A DNA stretch of 64,000 bases from Lachnospiraceae bacterium (GTDB taxonomy: Bacteria; Bacillota; Clostridia; Lachnospirales; Lachnospiraceae). A program made the translations under genes and the position numbers. This document shows, piece by piece, positions 7,146 through 20,648 of this stretch. Every line of letters starts with the position of its first letter. Within the stretch, counting starts at the first letter, position 1. The notes beneath the pieces were generated by a model, which saw only the letters and a program-made list of their open reading frames with translations, was not told the DNA's origin and made no database searches. The stretch covers positions 124,001 through 188,000 of the forward strand of contig JAETOL010000001.1 in assembly GCA_021771755.1 (NCBI GenBank), in the 5' to 3' direction.

Positions 7146-8766
7146 CTACTTGTTCGCTATCTTCTGCCCATCCTGTTCTTTTATAAAGCCTTCTGTCCAT
7201 ATGTGGATTCCGTCTGTATACAAAATGACGGCACCGTTTTTCATGGTATATTCTACTTTTATCCCGTTCTTTTTCATCCGAAGAGTAGTTTCCGGCGAGG
7301 GATGTCCATAGGTATTGGAGTCGGAGCAGGATATAACTGCCAGTTCCGGCTTTACCCGATCCAGAAACTCCTGGCAGGTGGAATATCTTGATCCATGATG
7401 GGCTGTCTTTAAAAAGTCCACATCCGAAAACTCTGGCAGCAGTTTTTTCTCTGTATTCATGCCAATATCGCCGGTAAAAAGCCCCTGAAACTCTCCGTAC
7501 TCTACTTCTATTACCATGCCGTCCTCATTTACATTCTCTCCCGAAGTATTCTTCAAAGGAGCAAGGATTCGAAATTTTACTTTTCCACTGGAAAAAACAT
7601 CTCCATTTTCAATATGGAGCACCTGGACTTCTGCTTTTTTTGCCAGGTTTTCAAGGAGCTGATAAGCTTCCGGCTTTTCTCTCCACCGTGGCAGCATTAA
7701 TGTTCCTGCTTTTACTGAAGTCAGTCCCTGCGCCATATACTCCAAAAGTTCCTGTATACCGCTGATATGATCAATATCTGTATGCGAGACAAAGATTCCG
7801 TCTATATAGGATATTCCTCTGCTTTTTAAATATGGAAGAAGCTGGTATGCTGCTGTGTTTTTCTTATTGCTGCTTCCGCAATCCATAAGAAATACTCCTT
7901 TTTCCGGCAGTTCCAGAACAATCCCATCTCCCTGGCCGATATCCAGACAGGTAATACGAAGCTTGTTTTGAGGATGCCAGGAAAGGATAAGGATTCCGGC
8001 CAATATCACAATACTGCATAAAAAAATCCTTCCGGTTCTCTTCTTTTTTTCCCTTATCCGCAGTCCCCAGAATATCCCCAGGGTCATCAGCCCATAATAC
8101 ATCACCCACTGCCAGACTTCCGGTTTTCCTCCAATCCAGGTACAGAAAGGCAGTTTTCCTGCCAGCATACCCAGTTCCTCATAAAACCATAGAAGCACTC
8201 TTCCGGGAACAACAGCCACAGCTGCAGCCTCCCGGTTTATAAAGCCAACTATGCTGCAGCATAACCCGCTGAGCAATACCCCGCCTACCGTAGGAAGTAC
8301 TGCCAGGTTCAAAAAAATACCGGCAACGGAAACCTCGCCAAAGGATGTCAGCATAATCGGAAGTGTAGAGAGCTGTACCGCTGCAGACCCTGCCAGAGCT
8401 TTGCCCACCCGGCTTCGTATCCTCATGATTTTTGTCAGGCAGGGCAGCACAAAAGCCACGCCCACCACTGCCCCAAAAGACAGCAAAAAGCTGCTGCTGT
8501 ATAAATACGCAGGGGAATCCAGAAGAAGCAAAATTGCGGATACCGCCAGCGCAGTAAGGATATCATAGGTCCTTCCCAGAATCTTCGCGCCCACCGAAAG
8601 CACAAACATACATACCGCTCTCATAGAAGAAACACTCCCTCCGGTAAATATCCCATACTGGAGCATTACCATAAGGGATAAAAAACCAGCCGTTCCATTT
8701 CCCAATCTCATTTTTTTCATCAGGGAAAAAAGACCCATTCCAAGAATACTGATATGCAGCCCCGTT
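7146..8766 (-). pseudogene. comEC: comEC/rec2 lacking its 5' end (DNA uptake channel)
   Basis: ComEC forms the inner-membrane channel for transforming DNA. The readable frame (MGLFSLMKK onward, 530 aa) has the Competence-domain membrane helices and the C-terminal beta-lactamase-like domain with DIGQGDGIVLELP, SHTDIDHISGI, FTGDIG and TAHHGSRYST. The frame continues upstream of the first ATG (8738) through GLHISILG, which belongs to the conserved SGLH membrane motif, and then hits TAA at about 8767. The normal N-terminal 170-250 residues (OB domain and first helices) are missing and no comEA is present. I infer that a mobile element broke the gene at this point. A truncated product from 8738 would probably not be a working channel. 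Confidence 0.85.
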
Positions 8767-9070: not shown

Positions 9071-9194
9071 CTCACACACTTTGTCTAAACATTTTTGACA
9101 TTGGTGCTAGAATATAAATAGTACAAGCCAAAATGAGAAATTCCAAATACACATAAGCATGGTACAATAGAAACATGCTGAAGGAGGATCTCAT

Positions 9195-9479
9195 ATGGCA
9201 AAGCAACATGACAAACAATTTAAACTTGATGCAATCCAGTACTATCAGGATCACAAAGATCTCGGAGTACGTGGATGTGCTGAAAATCTTGGCATCGGCT
9301 ACAGTACATTAACAAAGTGGCTGAAAGACTTCCGGGAATCAGGTGATATTCCTGTTCGTGGTTCTGGTAATTATGCATCTGATGAGCAGAAGGAAATTGC
9401 CCGTCTCAGACGTGAATTACGTGATGCCCAAGATGCACTTGATGTGTTAAAAAAAGCAATCAACATTCTGGGAAAATGA
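9195..9479 (+). CDS. IS3-family transposase OrfA
   Basis: OrfA supplies the DNA-binding half of the transposase. The 94-residue protein has a helix-turn-helix (GVRGCAENLGIGYSTLTKW, about 23-41) and a leucine-zipper-like coiled coil (ARLRRELRDAQDALDVLKKA) at its C-terminus. Start ATG 9195 has AAGGAGG upstream. Near the end, TTA AAA AAA GCA gives a run of seven A where -1 slippage would fuse it to OrfB through SNQHSGKMTEA. It overlaps orfB by 4 bp. Confidence 0.93.
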   Translation: MAKQHDKQFKLDAIQYYQDHKDLGVRGCAENLGIGYSTLTKWLKDFRESGDIPVRGSGNYASDEQKEIARLRRELRDAQDALDVLKKAINILGK

Positions 9480-10390
9480 CGGAAGCCATTTATCTCGAAG
9501 TGTCTGAGAAGACGGAAGCTGCCAAAAAGGCTGGACGCCGGGTTTCCGTCTCCGGAATGTTGAAATTTTTAGGTGTCTCTCGCTCAGGGTATCTTGCATG
9601 GCTCCACCACGTACCTTCTGATGCAGAAAAACGTCGTGAAGCTGTAAAAGCAAAAATACAGGATATTTATGATGATTCCAAGCAGAACTACGGTGCTCCA
9701 AAAATCACTGTAGAACTTCGAAAAACGGGTGAAGTCATTTCGGAAAGAACCGTTGGTACATATATGCGCCAAATGGGGATCCGTGCTCAGTGGAGCAAAC
9801 CATGGACCATCACCACAAAAGATTCTGATTTCAGCACAGAATTACAAAATATCCTTGATGAACAGTTTAATCCTGACCGCCCGAATGCTGTCTGGTGTTC
9901 GGATATCACCTACATCTGGACAATAGACGGATTTGTCTATCTGACCAGTATTATGGATTTATTTTCCAGAAAAATCATAGCCTGGACACTTTCAGAAACA
10001 CTGGAAGTATCCTGCGCGATTGATACTATAAACAAAGCCAAAGCTCGCCGAAATATTGATCAACCATTAATTATCCATTCGGATCGTGGCAGCCAATATG
10101 TTGCAAAAGAATATAAAAAAGCAACCGAAAATATGCAGCGTAGCTACTCGAAGAAAGCTTTTCCGTGGGATAATGCATGCATTGAATCCTTTCATTCTGT
10201 TATCAAACGTGAATGGCTCAATCGCTTTAAAATTCGTGATTATAAGCAGGCATACCAGTTGATTTTTGAATATCTGGAAGCTTTCTACAATACGAAACGA
10301 ATTCATAGCCATTGCAACTATATGTCGCCAAACGAATTCGAACGAGTGTATGAAAGAACGCACACTGAGGCGGAGCTTCTGGCAGGTTAA
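9476..10390 (+). CDS. IS3-family transposase OrfB (DDE catalytic domain)
   Basis: This is the rve-type catalytic part of the transposase, active as an OrfAB fusion made by -1 frameshifting. The DDE triad is visible as WCSDITYIW (D about 142), IIHSDRGSQY (D about 202) and ACIESFHSVIKREW (E about 238), with normal spacing for the IS3 family. The 304-residue length is full. The ATG at 9476 lies in the overlap with orfA, so a separate OrfB can also be made. Intact, so the element may still be active. Confidence 0.95.
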   Translation: MTEAIYLEVSEKTEAAKKAGRRVSVSGMLKFLGVSRSGYLAWLHHVPSDAEKRREAVKAKIQDIYDDSKQNYGAPKITVELRKTGEVISERTVGTYMRQMGIRAQWSKPWTITTKDSDFSTELQNILDEQFNPDRPNAVWCSDITYIWTIDGFVYLTSIMDLFSRKIIAWTLSETLEVSCAIDTINKAKARRNIDQPLIIHSDRGSQYVAKEYKKATENMQRSYSKKAFPWDNACIESFHSVIKREWLNRFKIRDYKQAYQLIFEYLEAFYNTKRIHSHCNYMSPNEFERVYERTHTEAELLAG

Positions 10391-10411
10391 AGTGGGGAGA
10401 AATTTCTCATT

Positions 10412-10897
10412 TTAACTTGTACTAAATCTTGACATAGGACCACATAGAAATTGCTTTGCCTTATCAAAGTCCAATCCACTACCATCGTCATAAGTAACAC
10501 TTGCTTCGAATATCCCTCGTCCCGGCATACCAGAAATATGGAACATACACTCTCCATCACCATGTCCACTTGTCATAATCCCCATTGTACCGTTCTCCAG
10601 AACTTCTGTACCGTCATCAGAATAAGCTCTCGTATCCAAATTGCTAATATCCATTGTATTAAGGCACACCAATCCTATCATTCCACTTTTTCTGAAATAT
10701 GGCATTAAACTATTTTCATTGTCACCACAAATGTAACAGTCTCCTTTTAATTCAGAATCAACCTGAATACTATAATCTTTTTCTTCTATGCTTTCAGAAA
10801 GAACTCTATCCTTAAAATCGGATTGGGTTGCTTTTTCTGTACATCCAGACAACACACACATTGATGCCAATAGTAACGGAATTACTAATTTTTTCAT
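10412..10897 (-). CDS. Lipoprotein with 3' end replaced by IS3 sequence
   Basis: The 161-residue product begins with a lipoprotein signal (MKKLVIPLLLASMCVLSGC, lipidated Cys 19), so it would sit on the outer face of the membrane. The rest has no family I recognise; it contains several Cys and Gly-Asp motifs (GDCYICGDNE, SGHGDGECMF). The last residues (MSRFSTS) are read from the IS end. Without the IS the frame would run on as MSKMFRQSV and stop. The change is small, so the protein may still work. It is followed after the IS by the 8867-9070 gene. Confidence 0.7.
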   Translation of the reverse strand: MKKLVIPLLLASMCVLSGCTEKATQSDFKDRVLSESIEEKDYSIQVDSELKGDCYICGDNENSLMPYFRKSGMIGLVCLNTMDISNLDTRAYSDDGTEVLENGTMGIMTSGHGDGECMFHISGMPGRGIFEASVTYDDGSGLDFDKAKQFLCGPMSRFSTS

Positions 10898-12394: not shown

Positions 12395-12784
12395 ATGCCT
12401 ATAAACTATCCATTAATTGGTATCCGCATCAAAGAAATCCGAAATCAGCAAGGAATCTCTGCGGAAGAATTAGCTGAACTGGCAGATTTATCTTCTGTTT
12501 ATATCAGCTACATTGAAAATGCCAAGCGGAAACCCAGTTTAGAATCTCTTGTCAAAATCTGCAATGCACTGGGAATTACGTTGGATGAATTGCTCTATGG
12601 AAATCTGCTTTACAATCCTACAGAATATCAAACAGATATTGATCTGCTTATGGCAGACTGTTCCAAAAACGAAAAGCGTTTCATCTTCCTGATTCTTTCT
12701 GCGGTAAAAGATATTCTTCGGAGCAATGATTGGTCTTTAATTGAAAAAATACTTCTAAAGGACAGCAATTTAAAAGACCTATAA
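12395..12784 (+). CDS. XRE-family transcriptional regulator
   Basis: A 129-residue protein with an N-terminal XRE helix-turn-helix (RIKEIRNQQGISAEELAELADLSSVYISYIE, residues 11-41) followed by LVKICNALGITLDELLYG. The C-terminal half is helical with no known domain and may mediate dimerisation. It is followed by a terminator at 12812-12853, then by the serine recombinase operon in the same direction, so it may control that operon. Confidence 0.88.
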   Translation: MPINYPLIGIRIKEIRNQQGISAEELAELADLSSVYISYIENAKRKPSLESLVKICNALGITLDELLYGNLLYNPTEYQTDIDLLMADCSKNEKRFIFLILSAVKDILRSNDWSLIEKILLKDSNLKDL

Positions 12785-12811: not shown

Positions 12812-12853
12812 ATAAACCATCCGTTATTCAATTAACTGGTGGTTTATGTCTTT
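12812..12853 (+). terminator. Terminator after the 12395 XRE gene
   Basis: ATAAACCA (12812-12819) pairs with TGGTTTAT (12840-12847), followed by a T-rich stretch. A TATAAT hexamer at 12869-12874, without a clear -35 partner, could begin the recombinase operon. Confidence 0.7.
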
Positions 12854-12907: not shown

Positions 12908-14776
12908 ATGAAAGAATATGAAGAAAGAACTGAAACAATCGAACAACAAAAAGCCCTTATTCGTGAACGTTATAAAGGAATAAATCCCGATGAGCTTGAT
13001 GTCATTCCTGCGCTCCCAAAACCGGATATATTTAAAACATCTTCCATGTTAAGAGTAGCAGTTTATGCTAGAGTTTCCACTGACGATCCTCGGCAGACAT
13101 CCTCATACGAGCTTCAAAAAAATCATTATCAAGACGTGGTAGATCGTAACCCCAACTGGAATCTTGTGAAAATATATGCCGATGAAGGAATTTCCGGTAC
13201 ATCTCTGCAACATAGAGAAGCCTTCAAGCAGATGGTACAAGACTGCGAAGATGGCAAAATTGATCTTATACTCACAAAAAGTGTATCTCGATTTGCTCGT
13301 AATGTTGTGGACTGTATCGGTTATGTCCGAGAGCTTCTTTCTCTCCGTCCTCCGGTCGGTGTATTTTTTGAAACCGAACATTTAAATACCCTTGATCCCA
13401 AAAGCGAAATGATTCTTTCCTTCATGTCTACCCTTGCACAAGAGGAAAGTCATACAAAAAGTGAAATCATGAATGCCTCTATTGAGATGCGTTTTCGCCG
13501 AGGAATATTCCTGACACCCCCTTTGCTTGGATATGATCAAGACGAAAACGGAGAATTAAAAATTAATGAACACGAGGCGAAAATCGTAAAGCTGATTTTT
13601 TATATGTATTTGAACGGAAATACCTGTCAGGAAATTGCCGATACGCTTACGGAACTTGGTTGTAAAACAAAAAAGAATAATGAAGTATGGTCTTCCGGTT
13701 CTGTTCTCCAGATTTTACAAAACGAAAGACATTGTGGTGATGTGCTTGCCCGTAAAACATGGACACCAAATTATCTTGATCATAAATCCCGAAAAAACAA
13801 TCAAGACCGTAATCAATATAGAAAACGTGAACATCATGAAGCCATTATTTCACGAGATGATTTCATTGCAGTTCAAAAACTGATCAGTAATGCTAAATAC
13901 GGAAACAAAGCCTTGCTTCCTGAACTTCATGTGATTCCAGACGGAGCACTAAAAGGATTCATCACGGTTAACCCCCGTTGGGCCGGATTCAAACCAGATG
14001 ATTATCGTGCTGCTTCATCCAGTATTCCCGATTCAGAAATCACGCTTTCGGATACAATCCCTATTACTGCGCAACTTGGTTCTTTTGACTTAAGAGGATA
14101 TGAAATCGCACATGGTCAGTTTTTTGAAACTACTGGAAAAATATCAGCGACTCTATCTTATGAAAAACTCAATTTTAGTACGGAAGCACTCAGAAAATTT
14201 GGGGAAATTAAAACCGTAGAACTGCTGATACATCCAAGTTCCTACCTTCTCGCTGTACGGCCTTGCACACTTGAAGATAATCGAAATAAAGTCCAATGGG
14301 CGCGCCTGCGAAATGGAGTTCTCGTTCCTCGCTATATATATGGAGCAGCCTTCCTACCTACACTTTACGAATTGTTTGGCTGGAATCCAAACTGCAAATA
14401 CCGTGTTCTCGGAGTGGCACATCAAAAGGGATCTGAAAATGTCCTGATTTTTAATATGAAAGAAACCGAAGTACGCATTCCGAATGAAGCACCTGCAACA
14501 ACGGACAAAGATTCCCCTAATAAATCAACAGAAGCTTCCTCCACCCCCAAAACTATCCTCGGTTATCCGGCAGAATGGATGAATAGCTTTGGAAACAATT
14601 ATTATAGTCAAACTCATGCACGGGAACTGGCTGCTTTTACAAATAATAAGAATTGGCAAACCACCTCTGAAGGACAGCCCTATAAGGAATCAGAACTGCA
14701 TACCACGCCCAAAGCGGATCTCACGAAAGGAATCGTGGAAATTATGGAAGAAATAAAGGAGAATCGTAATGACTGA
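12908..14776 (+). CDS. Large serine recombinase with a novel C-terminal domain
   Basis: Serine recombinases cut and rejoin DNA through a covalent phosphoserine. The resolvase domain starts at residue 48 with the catalytic serine in YARVS (Ser57) and the SRFARN segment at 127-132; the recombinase domain runs about 205-330 and ends in ALKGF. The zinc ribbon usual in large serine recombinases is absent. Instead residues about 390-562 form a separate domain with LAVRPC (448-453), GWNPNCKYRVLG (491-502) and YPAEW.N.FG (553-562), which recurs in the next protein and in reduced form in the third. First gene of a five-gene operon with overlapping ends. Role in integration, excision or another inversion is not decided by the sequence. 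Confidence 0.9.
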   Translation: MKEYEERTETIEQQKALIRERYKGINPDELDVIPALPKPDIFKTSSMLRVAVYARVSTDDPRQTSSYELQKNHYQDVVDRNPNWNLVKIYADEGISGTSLQHREAFKQMVQDCEDGKIDLILTKSVSRFARNVVDCIGYVRELLSLRPPVGVFFETEHLNTLDPKSEMILSFMSTLAQEESHTKSEIMNASIEMRFRRGIFLTPPLLGYDQDENGELKINEHEAKIVKLIFYMYLNGNTCQEIADTLTELGCKTKKNNEVWSSGSVLQILQNERHCGDVLARKTWTPNYLDHKSRKNNQDRNQYRKREHHEAIISRDDFIAVQKLISNAKYGNKALLPELHVIPDGALKGFITVNPRWAGFKPDDYRAASSSIPDSEITLSDTIPITAQLGSFDLRGYEIAHGQFFETTGKISATLSYEKLNFSTEALRKFGEIKTVELLIHPSSYLLAVRPCTLEDNRNKVQWARLRNGVLVPRYIYGAAFLPTLYELFGWNPNCKYRVLGVAHQKGSENVLIFNMKETEVRIPNEAPATTDKDSPNKSTEASSTPKTILGYPAEWMNSFGNNYYSQTHARELAAFTNNKNWQTTSEGQPYKESELHTTPKADLTKGIVEIMEEIKENRND

Positions 14777-15554
14777 CACACCTGTAAACACATGGAAACT
14801 GGCACAAAATATTCCCGAAGATATGAGCAAACCTCAAAATCCCCTGCCAGTAACTATCACACCGGGAAAGGATGGACAATCCGACATCATTGAAGACATG
14901 GATTTCAGCTTTGATGGATATCAAGTTGTCCGTGGCGAATTTTTCGCCCATACATTTGAGCCTTCCTTTACATTTAACAATTACAAAGTATCTGTAAATA
15001 TGGCCTGTATAAAAAAACTTCCTTCTGTAGAATATGTGCAGATACTCGTAAACCCAGAAGAAAAAAAGCTTGCTGTAAGGCCATGCCGTGAAGAAGAAAA
15101 AGACTCTTTTCGTTGGTGTTCCGCAGGAAAAAAGAAAAATCCAAAACAGATCACCTGCCGGATATTCTTTGCAAAAGTTATCTCTTTGATGAACTGGAAT
15201 CCTAACTATCGTTACAAACTTTTAGGAAAACTCATCCGATCCGGTGATGAAGTATTATTCATTTTTGACCTGACAACCCCGGAAATATTCATGCGCACTT
15301 CCAAAGAGGGAGAAAAGCCAAGAGTATCTCGAACTGCAAGCTATCCTTCTGAGTGGCAGAATCAATTCGGAGTTCCTGTCGAAGAGCATCAAAATGCCCT
15401 GCAGATCAATATTTTTGATGGATATGCAGTATTTGATGTCCATGAAAAAAAGAAAACACAGTCTCCTATGCAGGAGCAGATACCAGTCCCAAACGAAAGT
15501 GAGGTGCTAGATGATGAGTCGAGAAAATCTATGTCAACCCATCCTGAGTATTGA
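14769..15554 (+). CDS. Stand-alone copy of the recombinase C-terminal domain
   Basis: The 261-residue protein has no catalytic serine. Residues about 45-215 match the C-terminal domain of the upstream recombinase: GYQVVRGEFF against GYEIAHGQFF, KLAVRPC against LLAVRPC, MNWNPNYRYKLLG against FGWNPNCKYRVLG, and YPSEWQNQFG against YPAEWMNSFG. The start overlaps the recombinase stop by 8 bp, so it is probably made in step with it. I infer a DNA-binding or structural partner of the recombinase. No function has been assigned to the domain to my knowledge. Confidence 0.8.
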   Translation: MTDTPVNTWKLAQNIPEDMSKPQNPLPVTITPGKDGQSDIIEDMDFSFDGYQVVRGEFFAHTFEPSFTFNNYKVSVNMACIKKLPSVEYVQILVNPEEKKLAVRPCREEEKDSFRWCSAGKKKNPKQITCRIFFAKVISLMNWNPNYRYKLLGKLIRSGDEVLFIFDLTTPEIFMRTSKEGEKPRVSRTASYPSEWQNQFGVPVEEHQNALQINIFDGYAVFDVHEKKKTQSPMQEQIPVPNESEVLDDESRKSMSTHPEY

Positions 15555-15912
15555 TTTAAAAAAGAGTCTTATTCGTATTCATCGTAATACACTACGGCTT
15601 CTCGGCGATCCTGATTATATTCAACTACTGATTAATCCCAATTCCAAAATGATAGCAATAAAGGCTGGCGATAAACGGGATTATCTCGCACATAAAGTTA
15701 GAAAATATCGTTTTGAAACAGGATACAGTTATGAATTATACTGTAAAGATTTATTACAAACCATGATGACTGTAGACTGTGGGTGGGAATATGGAAATAT
15801 TTTCCGCTTATATGGGCAATTTAATTCCAAAGCAGGAGTTATACAGTTTTCCATGTCGGAAACGTCCCCTTCTATGCAACAGAATACTGAATGGAGTGAA
15901 CAAACATTATGA
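15511..15912 (+). CDS. Reduced copy of the recombinase accessory domain
   Basis: A 133-residue protein that matches the core of the accessory domain only: DYIQLLINPNSKMIAIKAG against EYVQILVNPEEKKLAVRPC, then a later GWEYGNIFRLYGQF against NWNPNYRYKLLGKL and GVIQFSM against LFIFDL. It lacks the YPxEW motif. ATG 15511 (or 15514) has GAGGTG upstream and lies 44 bp inside the previous gene. The third member of a domain family in one operon; function unknown. Confidence 0.7.
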   Translation: MMSRENLCQPILSIDLKKSLIRIHRNTLRLLGDPDYIQLLINPNSKMIAIKAGDKRDYLAHKVRKYRFETGYSYELYCKDLLQTMMTVDCGWEYGNIFRLYGQFNSKAGVIQFSMSETSPSMQQNTEWSEQTL

Positions 15913-16862
15913 GCAGCTATAATAACTATACCCTTAAATTTGATCCGGAATTTACGAATCTCATTCAGCCATTAGAAGATCGCGAACATAAATCACTGGA
16001 ACGAAAAATAAGCTCCCACGCATACAGTGAGCCGATTTACACTTGGAATGGATTGATTGTGGATGGAGTTGAAGCATATCAAATCTGTCATAAACGAGGA
16101 ATCAAATTTCGTATCAAACGCATGTATTTTTTAAGCCGGGAGGATGCAGTCTCATGGATCTGCACACAGCAACTTAAACGTGAAGACCTTACAGAAGCCA
16201 ACCGCAAATATGTGATTGGGAAGAAATACGATGCCGTAAAAGCGATTACTGCCCGTCTTTCATCTGAAAATTCCACTACCGGAAAAGGCAGTCATACATA
16301 TCATATAGAAAAGAAAATTCCTTGCAGGCATATTTCCGCAACACAGATAGCATCTGAATGCAACACATCTCCTGCTTCCGTGTACAAATACAATGAATAT
16401 AGTCGTGCATTGGATAATATTTGTGAGAAAACTCCCCAAATGGTAGAACGAATCCGTTCCGGTAAGCTTCGCATTTCTCACGCCAATATTATTGAACTTT
16501 CCCGACTGCCTCATTATGAACTCAAAAAATTATATGATTACATGATTGAAAAAGGCATTGAACATCTAAGCTATCCTGATATGAAGCGTGAACTTCAATG
16601 GAGAAAAGTTGTTGCTCCAACCCAAAAGGAAAAAAGCGTAGAACCGAAACCCGTCATCAAGCAAATGCCAAAATTTGATCCCGATGCCGAGCTTTCCAGT
16701 CTTTCTCTCACAATTCCTTCTTGGTGCAGTTCCATCGAACGGGTAATGAATGTGACTGATTTCCAACGTTCTTCTAAAGAAGGAAAAAAGCGTTTAAAAG
16801 TACAACTGAGTAATCTAATGACTGTAATTGATAAAATTACAAAGATTTTGGAGGAAGTATGA
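15909..16862 (+). CDS. ParB-like nuclease/partition-fold protein
   Basis: A 317-residue protein that resembles chromosome- or plasmid-partition ParB proteins without a ParA partner. Residues about 38-75 (YTWNGLIVDGVEAYQIC) look like the ParB/sulfiredoxin domain; REDLTEANRKYVIGKKYDA (about 90-108) and the helix-turn-helix around QIASECNTSPASVYKYNEYS (about 147-166) follow the ParB order; HANIIELSRLP lies in the next helix. The last 50 residues are a predicted coiled coil. It overlaps both neighbours by ATGA. It may mark or bridge DNA for the recombinase; that is inference. Confidence 0.75.
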   Translation: MSSYNNYTLKFDPEFTNLIQPLEDREHKSLERKISSHAYSEPIYTWNGLIVDGVEAYQICHKRGIKFRIKRMYFLSREDAVSWICTQQLKREDLTEANRKYVIGKKYDAVKAITARLSSENSTTGKGSHTYHIEKKIPCRHISATQIASECNTSPASVYKYNEYSRALDNICEKTPQMVERIRSGKLRISHANIIELSRLPHYELKKLYDYMIEKGIEHLSYPDMKRELQWRKVVAPTQKEKSVEPKPVIKQMPKFDPDAELSSLSLTIPSWCSSIERVMNVTDFQRSSKEGKKRLKVQLSNLMTVIDKITKILEEV

Positions 16863-17788
16863 TTATGGAAGAAAATATTGAAGAATTACAAAGATATGTC
16901 CCAAACGTTCATTTTGAACAGATACCTATCAAAAACCTTGTTTCAGACCAAAATTATCAAAGAAACCTATCTTTGCGCCATGTTGAAAAAGCAGCTGCAA
17001 ACTTCGATCTGTATCAAATCAATCCTGTAAAGGTAAGCCGTAGGAATGGCATTAATTATGTGTTTAATGGACAGCATACTATTGAAATCGTGGCATTGGT
17101 ATCCGGTTCCCGTGAAACTCCTGTCTGGTGTATGATCTATGATGATTTAAATTATACTCAGGAAGCAGATATCTTTGCTAACCAGATGAAATATGTAAAG
17201 CCTCTGCTGCCTTATGAAATCTTCATGGCTAACATCGAGGCTGGAAGCGAAAAAGAATTGATTATCAAGGATTTAGTGGAATCCTATGATTTATCTATCA
17301 CATCCTCTTCTCACCCCGGCGGAATCTGTGCGGTATCAACTTTGGTAAATATATATGACAAATATGGTTTCCATACTCTTGACCGTGTACTCCGCTTATG
17401 CGTGGCCACTTGGGAAGGCGCACCTATGTCCTTCAGTTCCAATATGCTGAACGCAGTCGCAAGGTTAGATAATGCTTTCGGAGATAAAATGAGTGATACC
17501 ACTTTCAAAGAAAGGGTTGGTCGTGTTTCTGTCCGTGAAATCGGACGTCAGGCAAGAGAACGCCGTGGAGGATCTCTTGGATTTGCAGAAGCGATTCTGA
17601 TTGCCTATAACAAAAAATCAAAACACCCTCTCCGCATGGATACCCTCTACGCTCATAAAACTCCACGAGGAAAAAAGGCGGATATTGAAACATCAGAAAA
17701 TACCGATGTATTCGAAGATGATATGGTTGATGGACAGCTCGCAATTTTTACAGAAGAAACTGAAGAAAATATGGCTCTGTTGGAATAA
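16859..17788 (+). CDS. ParB/sulfiredoxin-fold protein (DUF6551-like)
   Basis: A 309-residue protein starting with a ParB-like fold: IPIKNLVSDQNYQR (about 22-35) and NYVFNGQHTIEIVAL (about 63-77), in which GQH replaces the GERR of classical ParB. The middle and C-terminal parts are unique and helical. It resembles proteins now labelled DUF6551, known only from mobile elements. Last gene of the recombinase operon; its stop is 9 bp from the stop of the convergent recombinase at 17798. Function unknown. Confidence 0.72.
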   Translation: MIMEENIEELQRYVPNVHFEQIPIKNLVSDQNYQRNLSLRHVEKAAANFDLYQINPVKVSRRNGINYVFNGQHTIEIVALVSGSRETPVWCMIYDDLNYTQEADIFANQMKYVKPLLPYEIFMANIEAGSEKELIIKDLVESYDLSITSSSHPGGICAVSTLVNIYDKYGFHTLDRVLRLCVATWEGAPMSFSSNMLNAVARLDNAFGDKMSDTTFKERVGRVSVREIGRQARERRGGSLGFAEAILIAYNKKSKHPLRMDTLYAHKTPRGKKADIETSENTDVFEDDMVDGQLAIFTEETEENMALLE

Positions 17789-17797
17789 CCTCAGAGC

Positions 17798-19195
17798 CTA
17801 TATCTTTACCTTAATCTCCGTGCCATCCAAAAATCGAATCACCATTATTTCTTTTCCCTGTACAATTACCCTTTCCAAAACCATCTGTCCAAGTTCTGGC
17901 AGCATCTTTGTAAGAGGCGGTTGCAACGTCAATCCTATCATTTGTTCCGCACGAAGTCTTTCTAATGGATTTCCGTCTTTCTTGTTTTTCTCCCATTTGG
18001 GAAGATATTGTTCTCTTTCCGCAACAATCTGGTTCCACGCCGTAATAAAACCCTTAAGTAAGTTTTCATGCGGGAGATTCTCACTGGCACATCCTTTCAC
18101 TCCATGATTTTTACTTCTGTTATTACATTGCCAAAACTCTACTCCCCTGCTTTTCCAACTTTTCTTTCCACAAACTGCACCACACTTTCCACAGACTACC
18201 CTGCAAGAAAACGGATTGACCTCCGAGCCATATCCATAGAAAGTCAAGCCCAATTCCTGCATGTAGGAATCCCTTCTTTCCAATTCAAGTTGTGCCGCTT
18301 CCCATTGTTCTTTTGGAATGATTGCTTCGTGGCTCTCTTTTACATAAAACTGCTCCACTTCCCCATGATTCTTTTTTACTTTCTTGGTAAGGAAATCTGC
18401 TGTATAAGTTTTTTGCAAAAGGGCATCACCCATATATTTTTCATTTTTCAGAATCGCCCTTACAGATGCACTTCTCCATTCTTCCCTGCCTGTACCAGTC
18501 TTGATATGATCCTCCATCAGCATTTTTGCAATAGCAGCCGGATTATAGCCATTCAAAAACTCCCGATAAATTCGCTTCACTATTTTTGCCTGTTCCTTAT
18601 TTACAATCAGCTTCCCATCATCGCCTTTATCATATCCGAGAAATTTTGTACAATCCACCTGCGGAATTCCCTTTTTAAACTTGCTTCGTATTCCCCATTT
18701 ACAGTTCTCCGAAATATTTCTTGATTCGTCCTGAGCCAGCGAAGATAATATGGTAAACAATAATTCTCCTGATGCATCTAAAGTGTTGATGTGCTCTTTT
18801 TCAAAAAATATTCCGATTCCAAGATTCTTTAACCTTCTGCTATATTCCAAACAATCCTGCGTGTTACGAGCAAATCTTGATATGGATTTTGTAATGACCA
18901 AGTCGATTTTCCCTTCTTCACAGTCACGAATCATACGTTTAAATTCCTCACGCTTTTTGGTATTTGTGCCGGAAATTCCCTCATCCGCATAAATGCCTGC
19001 CATCTGATACAATGGATTATCCTGAATATATTTTGTGTAATACTCCACTTGATTTTCAAAACTGTTCAGCTGTTCTTCCTGATCTGTAGAAACCCTGCAA
19101 TATGCCGCTACCCGAAGGTTTCTCGTTTTCTGCTGAGTCCTGCCACCCACTCTATAAGGCTGACTCGCTGGTATAACTGTAATGCTTCTCGCCAT
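17798..19195 (-). CDS. Large serine recombinase, second of an overlapping pair
   Basis: The 465-residue protein has a resolvase domain with catalytic Ser36 in AAYCRVSTDQ, SRFARN, a recombinase domain, and one zinc ribbon beginning CGKCGAVCG and closing near KGCAS, then a coiled-coil tail. I start it at ATG 19195 because GGAAAGGAAG lies 7 nt upstream; a longer frame reaches 19231. Its first 43 bp overlap the end of the recombinase upstream, so the two are translated together. Such pairs occur in clostridial phages and integrative elements and may act as a hetero-complex. Confidence 0.93.
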   Translation of the reverse strand: MARSITVIPASQPYRVGGRTQQKTRNLRVAAYCRVSTDQEEQLNSFENQVEYYTKYIQDNPLYQMAGIYADEGISGTNTKKREEFKRMIRDCEEGKIDLVITKSISRFARNTQDCLEYSRRLKNLGIGIFFEKEHINTLDASGELLFTILSSLAQDESRNISENCKWGIRSKFKKGIPQVDCTKFLGYDKGDDGKLIVNKEQAKIVKRIYREFLNGYNPAAIAKMLMEDHIKTGTGREEWRSASVRAILKNEKYMGDALLQKTYTADFLTKKVKKNHGEVEQFYVKESHEAIIPKEQWEAAQLELERRDSYMQELGLTFYGYGSEVNPFSCRVVCGKCGAVCGKKSWKSRGVEFWQCNNRSKNHGVKGCASENLPHENLLKGFITAWNQIVAEREQYLPKWEKNKKDGNPLERLRAEQMIGLTLQPPLTKMLPELGQMVLERVIVQGKEIMVIRFLDGTEIKVKI

Positions 19196-20648
19196 TTTTA
19201 TCTTCCTTTCCCATAATATATATTTTGCCATCAGGCAGATTCCATCCCTTTATAATTTCATCGGGAATACGGACTCCCGGACATTTTGCCTGCCCCTTTC
19301 TTTTATAGCTCGAACATATCCATCTTACTGTTCCATGTGAAATATACCGTCCGAGCCTACTTCCGCATCTTGCACAATACAATCGTTTATAGTACGGATA
19401 ATTTTCCTCATTTAATTCTGGATATAGCTCTTTGTGATTGAATTTTTTCTTTTTATGCTTATTCTTCCATGTTCTCTCACCTACATGCTTTAAATGTACC
19501 TCTCCATACTTATCTACGGTTTCTGAAAAATATCTGTTTCCTTCAATCTCCATTTTCCGTAAATCGTTATCCAAAACGTGAATGCCTGTACAGAATTTTT
19601 TTGTCCCTCTCTTCTGTCCGGAGCAATCCCAAGAAAGCCGATGCCCATGACTGTACACCCGTGGCTTCAAAGGCCATCCACATTTTGCACAAAAAATATG
19701 ATTCATGTAAGGATAATTTTCTTCCGTGAATTCCTGAATCACAGAGTGTTCGGCTCTTTCTGCCCTCATGTCTTCCAGCTTCCGCTGTGCTTTTTCCCAT
19801 GTTTTTTCCGATACAATCGGCGGATGATTATCTTTTGCATAGTACATGGCTTTTTCTCCGCGATTCTGCACTTGGTGTCTTTTCCCATCTATAAAAGTTT
19901 TCTGCATCAGAACATCACCCTTGTAAATTTCATTTTCCACAATGCGGAAAACGGTACTCGCTGTCCACTCTGCCCCCTGAACGGTCTGAATATTTCTCGC
20001 ATTCAATACTCTTGCAATGTTCGTGCAGTTCACGCCCTGAATTACCAAATCGTAAATTTCCCTGATAACGGACGCTTCTGGTTCTTTTGCCCGATATTCT
20101 CCATTTTCATCTTTTTCATATCCATAAGATCTTTCCAAATAAGCTACGACTTCGCCATTCTCAATGCGGTGTAAATAAGCCATCTTGGAACTCTCACTTG
20201 CAGATTCACTTTCTGCTTGTGCAAATGCTGCCAATATGGTAAGCAGCAATTCTCCCGCTTCCGTAAGTGTATTGATGTTTTGTAGTTCAAAAAAAATACC
20301 GACATTTCGTTCCTTCAGCTCTCTGGAAGCCTTCAGAACGATTGCGGTATTTCTGGCAAACCGTGATACGGATTTCGTAATAATCAAATCAATCTTTCCA
20401 TTTTTCGCATCCTGCATCATTTTCTGAAACTGAGGGCGGCTTTCCTTAAAACCGGAAATTCCAAAATCTGCATAAACGCCTGCGAACTCATAAGCTGGAT
20501 TGGACTGAATCATCTCTGTATAATGAGACACTTGATTTTCCAATGAATTTTCTTGCTCAGATGCTTCCGTGGATACTCTCGCATATGCACAGACTTTTAA
20601 ACGTTTTTTCTCTTTTCCCATATCAGCTTTTCTAACTTCAATTTGCAT
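19152..20648 (-). CDS. Large serine recombinase with two zinc ribbons, first of the pair
   Basis: The 498-residue protein carries Ser26 in AYARVSTEAS, SRFARN near 95 and a recombinase domain to about 300. It then has two zinc ribbons: IFCAKCGWPLKP closing at WDCSGQKRGTKKFC, and LYCARCGSRLGR closing at WICSSYKRKGQAKC. Most large serine recombinases have one, so the second looks like an internal duplication. It starts at ATG 20648 behind GGAGGAG and has the conserved leader motif (20662-20693) directly upstream. Together with the 17798 gene it is a strong candidate for the prophage integrase/excisionase. Confidence 0.93.
   Translation of the reverse strand: MQIEVRKADMGKEKKRLKVCAYARVSTEASEQENSLENQVSHYTEMIQSNPAYEFAGVYADFGISGFKESRPQFQKMMQDAKNGKIDLIITKSVSRFARNTAIVLKASRELKERNVGIFFELQNINTLTEAGELLLTILAAFAQAESESASESSKMAYLHRIENGEVVAYLERSYGYEKDENGEYRAKEPEASVIREIYDLVIQGVNCTNIARVLNARNIQTVQGAEWTASTVFRIVENEIYKGDVLMQKTFIDGKRHQVQNRGEKAMYYAKDNHPPIVSEKTWEKAQRKLEDMRAERAEHSVIQEFTEENYPYMNHIFCAKCGWPLKPRVYSHGHRLSWDCSGQKRGTKKFCTGIHVLDNDLRKMEIEGNRYFSETVDKYGEVHLKHVGERTWKNKHKKKKFNHKELYPELNEENYPYYKRLYCARCGSRLGRYISHGTVRWICSSYKRKGQAKCPGVRIPDEIIKGWNLPDGKIYIMGKEDKNGEKHYSYTSESAL

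What the first reader, a model, noticed from the sequence alone, without database searches (positions are those of the whole stretch)
12908..17788. Five-gene recombinase operon with a triplicated unknown domain and two ParB-fold proteins
Sequence: a serine recombinase without zinc ribbon carries a C-terminal domain (LAVRPC, WNPN.KYR.LG, YPxEW.N.FG) that recurs as a stand-alone protein in the next gene and in reduced form in the third; two ParB-like proteins follow; every junction overlaps by 4-44 bp. Such tight coupling implies one complex. Inference: a recombination machine with its own DNA-bridging subunits, perhaps controlling directionality or inverting DNA. I know of no described function for the domain or the set.
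Basis: partly seen in the sequence, partly recalled or inferred. Interest (0 to 1): 0.85.

Follow-up and report, generated by a model that had tools for sequence, protein, structure and literature searches.

The report
Mobile-element recombinase with a new domain
A set of five tightly linked genes, built around a DNA-rearranging enzyme and a protein domain for which no solved relative was found, travels with viruses and other mobile DNA of gut bacteria, and what it does there is still unknown.

Summary
Window 12908-17788 carries five overlapping genes: a serine recombinase without zinc ribbon (REC), a stand-alone copy of its C-terminal domain (DOM), a reduced copy (dom3), an unclassified HTH/ParB-like protein (gene 4) and a DUF6551 ParB-fold protein (gene 5). 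Profile comparison confirms the three-copy domain (E 1e-42, 2e-14); its confident predicted fold has no solved match. The order is conserved: 130 of 173 DOM-bearing loci show all five genes in a row. The operon sits in a ~62-kb prophage that splits comEC. It is most likely not the integrase: a pair of zinc-ribbon recombinases lies beside it, and relatives of the operon occur in Tn554-type elements with tyrosine recombinases. REC's catalytic residues are invariant in 90 of 90 sequences. New here: a fixed-geometry 30-bp palindrome just before the operon, and a catalytically dead recombinase paralogue before REC in 45 loci. No sign of an inverting switch was found. Best reading: a second, non-integrating recombinase/ParB nucleoprotein complex, autoregulated at the palindrome. 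Function is inferred, not shown. Defence or exclusion is a serious rival.

The parts
12395..12784 (+). XRE-family regulator (129 aa) directly upstream of the operon
   Evidence: HTH_3 E 4e-18. In 61 of 155 loci with REC an XRE in this orientation is the next labelled gene upstream.
12815..12844 (.). 30-bp palindrome AACCATCCGTTATTC/AATTAACTGGTGGTT, 63 bp before the REC start; conserved fixed-geometry site RACYAnnnGtnnAnnnnTnnaCnnnTRGTY
   Evidence: Seed match in 51 of 149 upstream regions; one copy in the window at up to 3 mismatches, none in 100 shuffles.
12908..14776 (+). REC: serine recombinase, catalytic plus recombinase domains, no zinc ribbon, new C-terminal domain (about residues 390-580)
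   Evidence: S57, R55, D92, R128, R131 invariant in 90 of 90 aligned sequences (non-redundant choice from 143).
14769..15554 (+). DOM: stand-alone copy of the new domain (261 aa; ordered core about residues 45-215)
   Evidence: no PDB match by sequence or fold.
15511..15912 (+). dom3: reduced single copy of the domain (133 aa)
15909..16862 (+). gene 4: ParB-like (motif only) plus possible HTH, 317 aa
   Evidence: Weak resolvase-HTH hit E 0.0097, below the family's cut-off; no ParB profile hit in 27 members.
16859..17788 (+). gene 5: DUF6551 ParB-fold protein, 309 aa
   Evidence: E 6e-29; for nucleotide binding of the family.
17798..20648 (-). Two overlapping zinc-ribbon LSRs (17798-19231, 19152-20648): the prophage's likely integrases, convergent with the operon; context, not part of the module
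7146..8759 (-). C-terminal half of comEC; junction with the ~62-kb prophage near 8760. The N-terminal half lies beyond the window (Pfam match at contig C148 195128-195331, minus)

Best explanation
The operon is a conserved accessory module of mobile elements: a second, non-integrating site-specific recombinase complex. Shown: REC keeps every catalytic residue; its zinc-ribbon domain is absent and a new domain stands in its place that two partner proteins also carry; a 30-bp palindrome with fixed spacing lies just upstream of the first recombinase gene in many loci; the elements examined that carry the module have other, different recombinases. Inferred: REC, DOM and dom3 assemble through the shared domain; the HTH protein (gene 4) or REC binds the palindrome; the DUF6551 protein acts as a nucleotide-switched ParB-fold clamp that loads or bridges DNA; and the complex represses its own operon and licenses REC cleavage only in a defined nucleoprotein structure. 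The task is most likely rearrangement or maintenance of the element or of its variable, restriction-modification-bearing flank, not its insertion into the host. The dead recombinase paralogue in one branch would be a built-in brake or architectural partner. The recombination substrate is unknown.
For: Catalytic residues invariant in 90 of 90 REC; the upstream paralogue lacks the R.S and RxxR motif patterns in 45 of 45, near-copies included. Domain homology. Gene order in 130 of 173 loci, overlaps. Palindrome: 9 or more of 10 outer bases paired at even total lengths 26-42 in 32-43 of 149 upstream regions, at odd lengths 27-41 in 2-9; five sets of dinucleotide shuffles average 1.4-3.0. In 40 distinct sites the unseeded positions G9/C22 are kept in 40 and 39, A13/T18 in 35 and 35. 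PWM scan of held loci: 71 of 94 hits at 16 or more lie before REC or before the short paralogue; a mono-shuffled control gave 1 hit at 13 or more. Not the integrase: in Kineothrix the same comEC core (N side CMGG|TGT, C side ACGGG) is used although the operon lies at the other end, with cargo between it and the junction; in cpaF elements of three genomes a trio of tyrosine recombinases lies by the far end (domains, DUF6262 and TnpV checked in one), and in one of them no other LSR was found on the 475-kb contig at E 1e-3. Flank with many methyltransferases and other defence genes (no background set was scanned). DUF6551 ParB-fold proteins bound CTP or ATP in PMC12704722 (passages).
Against: No recombination product, no pair of matching sites and no strain difference caused by REC was found; the second site 929-989 bp upstream, in 12 loci and with scores from 24.9 down to 1.0, has a different centre, and the window shows none. 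The fold of the domain gives no function (BFVD match to KSY1 gp105). 42 of 100 loci with gene 4 have no site at PWM 14 or more. A T-rich tail after many palindromes keeps a terminator or attenuator open. A distant branch has a Fic protein in place of genes 4 and 5, which fits a toxin/effector system at least as well.
Confidence: 0.4

Rival explanations
1. A defence or superinfection-exclusion system: the REC-DOM-dom3 core recognises or processes incoming mobile DNA, and genes 4/5 (or a Fic protein in another branch) are interchangeable effectors.
For: The same kind of operon occurs in unrelated element types; its upstream flank holds many restriction-modification genes (of 134 proteins scanned: 8 C5 methylases, 5 AAA_5, 4 Eco57I, 2 MmeI, 2 HsdS-type); exchangeable third part, ParB pair or Fic; the XRE gene matches restriction control proteins, as many XRE proteins would.
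Against: None of the five proteins hits PADLOC-DB at E 0.01; no background was scanned for the flank counts; 15 of the 16 phage records nearest by terminase carry DOM, steadier than I would expect of defence cargo; no precedent known to me for a serine recombinase as defence effector.
Confidence: 0.22
2. A transcriptional or lysogeny-control complex in which recombinase catalysis is vestigial or rare: REC and gene 4 bind the palindrome(s) flanking the XRE regulators and set expression of the operon and its neighbours.
For: The palindrome sits at the operon start whether the XRE gene points towards or away from REC; second sites flank the divergent XRE pair in some loci; dead paralogue.
Against: Catalytic residues invariant in 90 of 90 argues against vestigial catalysis.
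Confidence: 0.2
3. A directionality factor or second integrase for the element's own insertion and excision.
For: In the five elements whose two ends were located (window, Kineothrix, three cpaF elements) the operon or its XRE gene lies about 0.5 to 8.3 kb from an end.
Against: Same comEC core used with the operon at either end of the prophage and cargo between; co-resident recombinases are serine in prophages, tyrosine in cpaF elements.
Confidence: 0.13
4. An invertible switch carrying the XRE regulators between two palindromic sites.
For: Two sites flank the XRE pair in 12 loci; the neighbouring XRE occurs in both orientations.
Against: Orientation is clade-stable, 6 changes against about 12 in shuffles; no inverted segments among close relatives; site centres differ.
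Confidence: 0.05

Closest known systems
Large serine recombinases (phage serine integrases, phiC31 integrase, CcrB)
   Same: Resolvase and Recombinase domains; REC aligns with serine integrase complexes 9y66 and 9dxd (the SPbeta system by recall) and with phiC31 integrase over these; best NCBIfam match CcrB E 2e-30, 106 bits against a cut-off of 900.
   Different: No zinc ribbon; new C-terminal domain shared with two separate proteins; most likely not the integrase of its element.
SCCmec CcrA/CcrB pairs and other multi-LSR integration systems (recalled)
   Same: Several serine recombinase genes in tandem.
   Different: Here the partners of REC are catalysis-free copies of its C-terminal domain, or a catalytically dead N-terminal domain.
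ParB-CTPase-fold orphan proteins of mobile elements (PMC12704722, passages), including DUF6551 and DndB/DGQHR
   Same: Gene 5 is DUF6551; weak DGQHR match E 0.0014; prophage setting.
   Different: Fixed operon with a serine recombinase; no ParA in the operon.
Ca. Heliusvirales gut phages (PMC9226167, passages; PV0364xx records)
   Same: Several records of this order match the window's DOM and terminase at 98-99.6%.
   Different: The paper's main text does not mention recombinase, integrase or ParB (word search); the five genes are 'hypothetical protein' in the one record viewed whole.

Membership tests
Large serine recombinase | Catalytic serine and arginines of the Resolvase domain | tested here: met
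   invariant in 90 of 90.
Large serine recombinase | Recombinase (RD) domain | tested here: met
   PF07508 E 3e-26.
Large serine recombinase | Zinc-ribbon domain with coiled coil | tested here: not met
   A C-terminal CxxC in 2 of 150 REC against 136 of 138 other LSRs; no zinc-ribbon hit. The coiled coil was not tested.
Large serine recombinase | Site-specific recombination between two sites | not testable with these tools
   No substrate found.
Prophage integrase at comEC | Gene lies by the attachment core | tested here: not met
   Two prophages: same core with the operon at either end and cargo between.
ParABS partition system | ParB-fold protein | tested here: met
   Gene 5 only, through DUF6551; gene 4 not confirmed.
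ParABS partition system | ParA ATPase in the operon | tested here: not met
   None of the five genes.
ParABS partition system | Centromere-like palindrome near the operon | tested here: inconclusive
   Palindrome found; score 14 or more in 58 of 100 loci with gene 4, 0 of 8 evaluable without and 1 of 9 not evaluable, but phylogeny confounds.
Invertible DNA switch | Both orientations among close relatives | tested here: not met
Known anti-phage defence system | Match to a catalogued defence protein | tested here: not met
   0 of the five proteins in PADLOC-DB 2.0.0 at E 0.01.

The most novel reading that the evidence does not exclude
A new class of multi-subunit serine recombinase machine: catalytic subunit, catalysis-free subunits sharing its C-terminal domain, a dead catalytic paralogue, and nucleotide-switched ParB-fold clamps assembled at a centromere-like palindrome, which rearranges or guards mobile elements independently of their integrases, with effector parts that can be exchanged (ParB pair or Fic).
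Probability: 0.25. Interest if true: 0.85.

Novelty: new variant of a known kind. Interest (0 to 1): 0.6.

Why it matters
It would show that serine recombinases, thought of as self-sufficient, can be built into NTP-switched multiprotein complexes, and it names a conserved module of human-gut phages and transposon-like elements whose job is open. The palindrome, the dead paralogue and the domain give concrete handles for biochemistry, and a recombinase without zinc ribbon could be of use as a tool.

Tried and rejected
Inversion switch: inverted repeats and minus-strand matches around the operon, XRE orientation on a REC tree: no support. REC as the comEC or cpaF integrase: judged unlikely after the element ends were defined. 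First reading put the cpaF junction too far right (homologous host cpaF was counted as element); corrected to about 475 bp after the gene-5 stop in L046. I first took Hungatella (G077) for an element without another serine recombinase because of a strict E limit; one search showed three. Sliding-clamp likeness of DOM (top PDB rows) rejected: TM 0.09, rmsd about 16 A, while the REC control gave TM 0.79 (by target) for 3g13_B. Co-variation of site letters with protein columns: no protein stood out, phylogeny dominates. Terminator reading of the palindrome: not excluded; against it stand the fixed even spacing, the conserved letters and its presence when the XRE gene points away. Profile search of genes 4, 5 and DOM in the PDB: no hit.
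Full report
What is there. REC has the Resolvase and Recombinase domains of large serine recombinases (LSRs) and nothing recognised beyond. DOM, dom3 and gene 4 match no Pfam or NCBIfam family with confidence (gene 4 has a PHROG hit of unknown function, E 3e-11). Gene 5 is DUF6551.

The domain. BLAST already links REC, DOM and dom3. With 90 REC and 107 DOM rows the profile comparison gives E 1e-42; dom3 (10 rows) against DOM gives E 2e-14. AlphaFold2 folds DOM with pLDDT of about 90 or more over residues 41-210 (mean of the whole 80.8). Foldseek found no PDB match (best rows sliding clamps with TM 0.09), whereas the same search with REC gave TM 0.79 (by target) to a C. difficile recombinase catalytic domain and E 6e-15 to a serine integrase complex, so the method worked. 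In BFVD the best match is KSY1 gp105 (E 4e-5, TM 0.57 by target), a protein without annotated function beside RNase HI.

Conservation. A DOM profile found 158 relatives in genome contigs (80 kept) and 105 in viral contigs (80 kept). In 173 loci with DOM, near-copies included, 130 have REC-DOM-dom3-gene4-gene5 in a row. By their titles the kept genome records are mostly Clostridia, with some Selenomonadales/Succiniclasticum, three Melainabacteria or Gastranaerophilales bins and one Mailhella bin; bins can be wrongly sorted. It is rare: 8 of 293 genomes of the class, six of them with a REC frame by DOM. The locus sample is conditioned on DOM, so it does not test how often DUF6551 or gene 4 occurs alone. 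Some distant loci show only the trio (for example L027, L031, L192-L197, some cut by contig ends), and others have a 700-822-aa Fic-domain protein after dom3 (L189, L238; a similar N-terminus in L033, L185, L235).

Setting. comEC is split: the C half ends at window 8759, the N half lies at contig 195128-195331, so a ~62-kb prophage holds the operon. Phage records nearly identical in DOM and terminase belong to Ca. Heliusvirales; 15 of the 16 records with terminase identity of 83% or more carry DOM; the exception, PV036455, has a contractile tail and three LSR-type genes at one end (read from the annotation, the first of the three only from its place and length). Two zinc-ribbon LSRs converge on the window's operon. 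In Kineothrix the same comEC core is used, but the operon and the LSR pair lie at opposite ends, 8.3 and 4.9 kb from the junctions. In Coprococcus comes, Blautia luti, Bilifractor porci and Faecalicatena contorta a relative of the operon lies at one end of an element at the same place in a cpaF/tadA-type ATPase gene (both ends seen in the first three). Those three elements of about 20-22 kb carry three large tyrosine-recombinase-like genes by the far end (domains, with DUF6262 and TnpV, checked in one of them), which I take as Tn554-type. A Hungatella contig has RecT, YqaJ and three further LSR genes near the operon. So the operon is most likely not the integrase, and it travels among unrelated element types. 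Its upstream flank holds many restriction-modification and other defence genes (134 proteins scanned of 161 gathered); the downstream flank fewer (116 scanned of 151). No background set was scanned, so 'enriched' is an impression.

The palindrome. About 46-65 bp before REC in most of the loci that have it lies a palindrome. Scoring paired outer arms at every total length gives 32-43 of 149 regions at even lengths from 26 to 42 and 2-9 at odd lengths between; dinucleotide shuffles average 1.4-3.0. A fixed centre is what a protein dimer site needs; a terminator loop need not keep it. In 40 distinct sites the unseeded letters G9, C22, A13 and T18 are conserved. A matrix scan of held loci puts 71 of 94 strong hits before REC or before the short paralogue. 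In 12 loci a weaker site lies 929-989 bp upstream, beyond the divergent XRE pair; the window has none. The site is found whichever way the XRE gene points. It scores 14 or more in 58 of 100 loci with gene 4 and in 0 of 8 evaluable loci without it, which suggests gene 4 as binder, but those 8 loci are mostly distant relatives.

The dead paralogue. In 45 loci, near-copies included, the gene before REC encodes about 200-250 aa related to the recombinase catalytic domain (Pfam Resolvase E 2e-4, just under its cut-off, for the one scanned) with both catalytic motif patterns missing in 45 of 45. REC itself keeps all catalytic residues in 90 of 90. Selection has thus kept one active and one inactive recombinase fold side by side.

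How it may work. The invariant catalytic site says that DNA cleavage matters. The fixed palindrome says that something binds there. DUF6551 ParB-fold proteins bound CTP or ATP in a published assay (PMC12704722, passages). I infer a nucleoprotein complex that represses its own operon and controls REC. The substrate is unknown; rearrangement or upkeep of the element or of its cargo flank is my first guess, exclusion or defence the second. Inversion of the regulators is not supported.

Literature. PMC9226167 was seen through the start of its abstract in the listing and passages; PMC12704722 through passages; other papers only in search listings. Searches for the phage name, DUF6551, recombinase with ParB in mobile elements, comEC with LSR, inactive serine recombinases and Tn554 with tadA listed nothing whose title or abstract concerns this operon; the library is open-access only.

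Noticed in passing
L238 8605-11073, L189 8313-10418, L235, L033, L185: In a distant branch the trio REC-DOM-dom3 is followed by a 700-822-aa Fic-domain protein (Fic hit in the two scanned) instead of genes 4 and 5.
   Followed up: partly
L092 7341-7967 and 44 other loci: Short gene before REC encodes a recombinase catalytic domain without its catalytic residues; L236 3685-4098 has a further small relative after dom3.
   Followed up: partly
L034 8594-9148: dom3-like copy followed by an HTH in one reading frame, in what looks like a decayed phage remnant.
   Followed up: no
window 9195-10390: IS3-type transposase pair (by eye) between the comEC junction and the operon, with 24-nt inverted ends at 9119-9142 and 10401-10424.
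   Followed up: no
L198, L199 (G061 C1 about 6217797-6220067 and 6283911-6284159): In Anaerocolumna the prophage sits at another point of comEC: a near-complete comEC lies beside the operon and an 82-aa comEC 3' fragment lies beyond the LSR end.
   Followed up: partly
L037 and L040 (IMGVR_UViG_2806310979_000001, 113553 bases): Two copies of the operon on one viral contig, possibly tandem prophages.
   Followed up: no
L072, L092, L157 and others: The convergent integrase block is often three LSR genes, the middle one only about 300 aa.
   Followed up: no
window 17798-20648 versus G064, G061: The comEC prophages share gene order as circles but are opened at different points, on the XRE side or the gene-5/LSR side, although the comEC core is the same in the window and Kineothrix.
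   Followed up: partly
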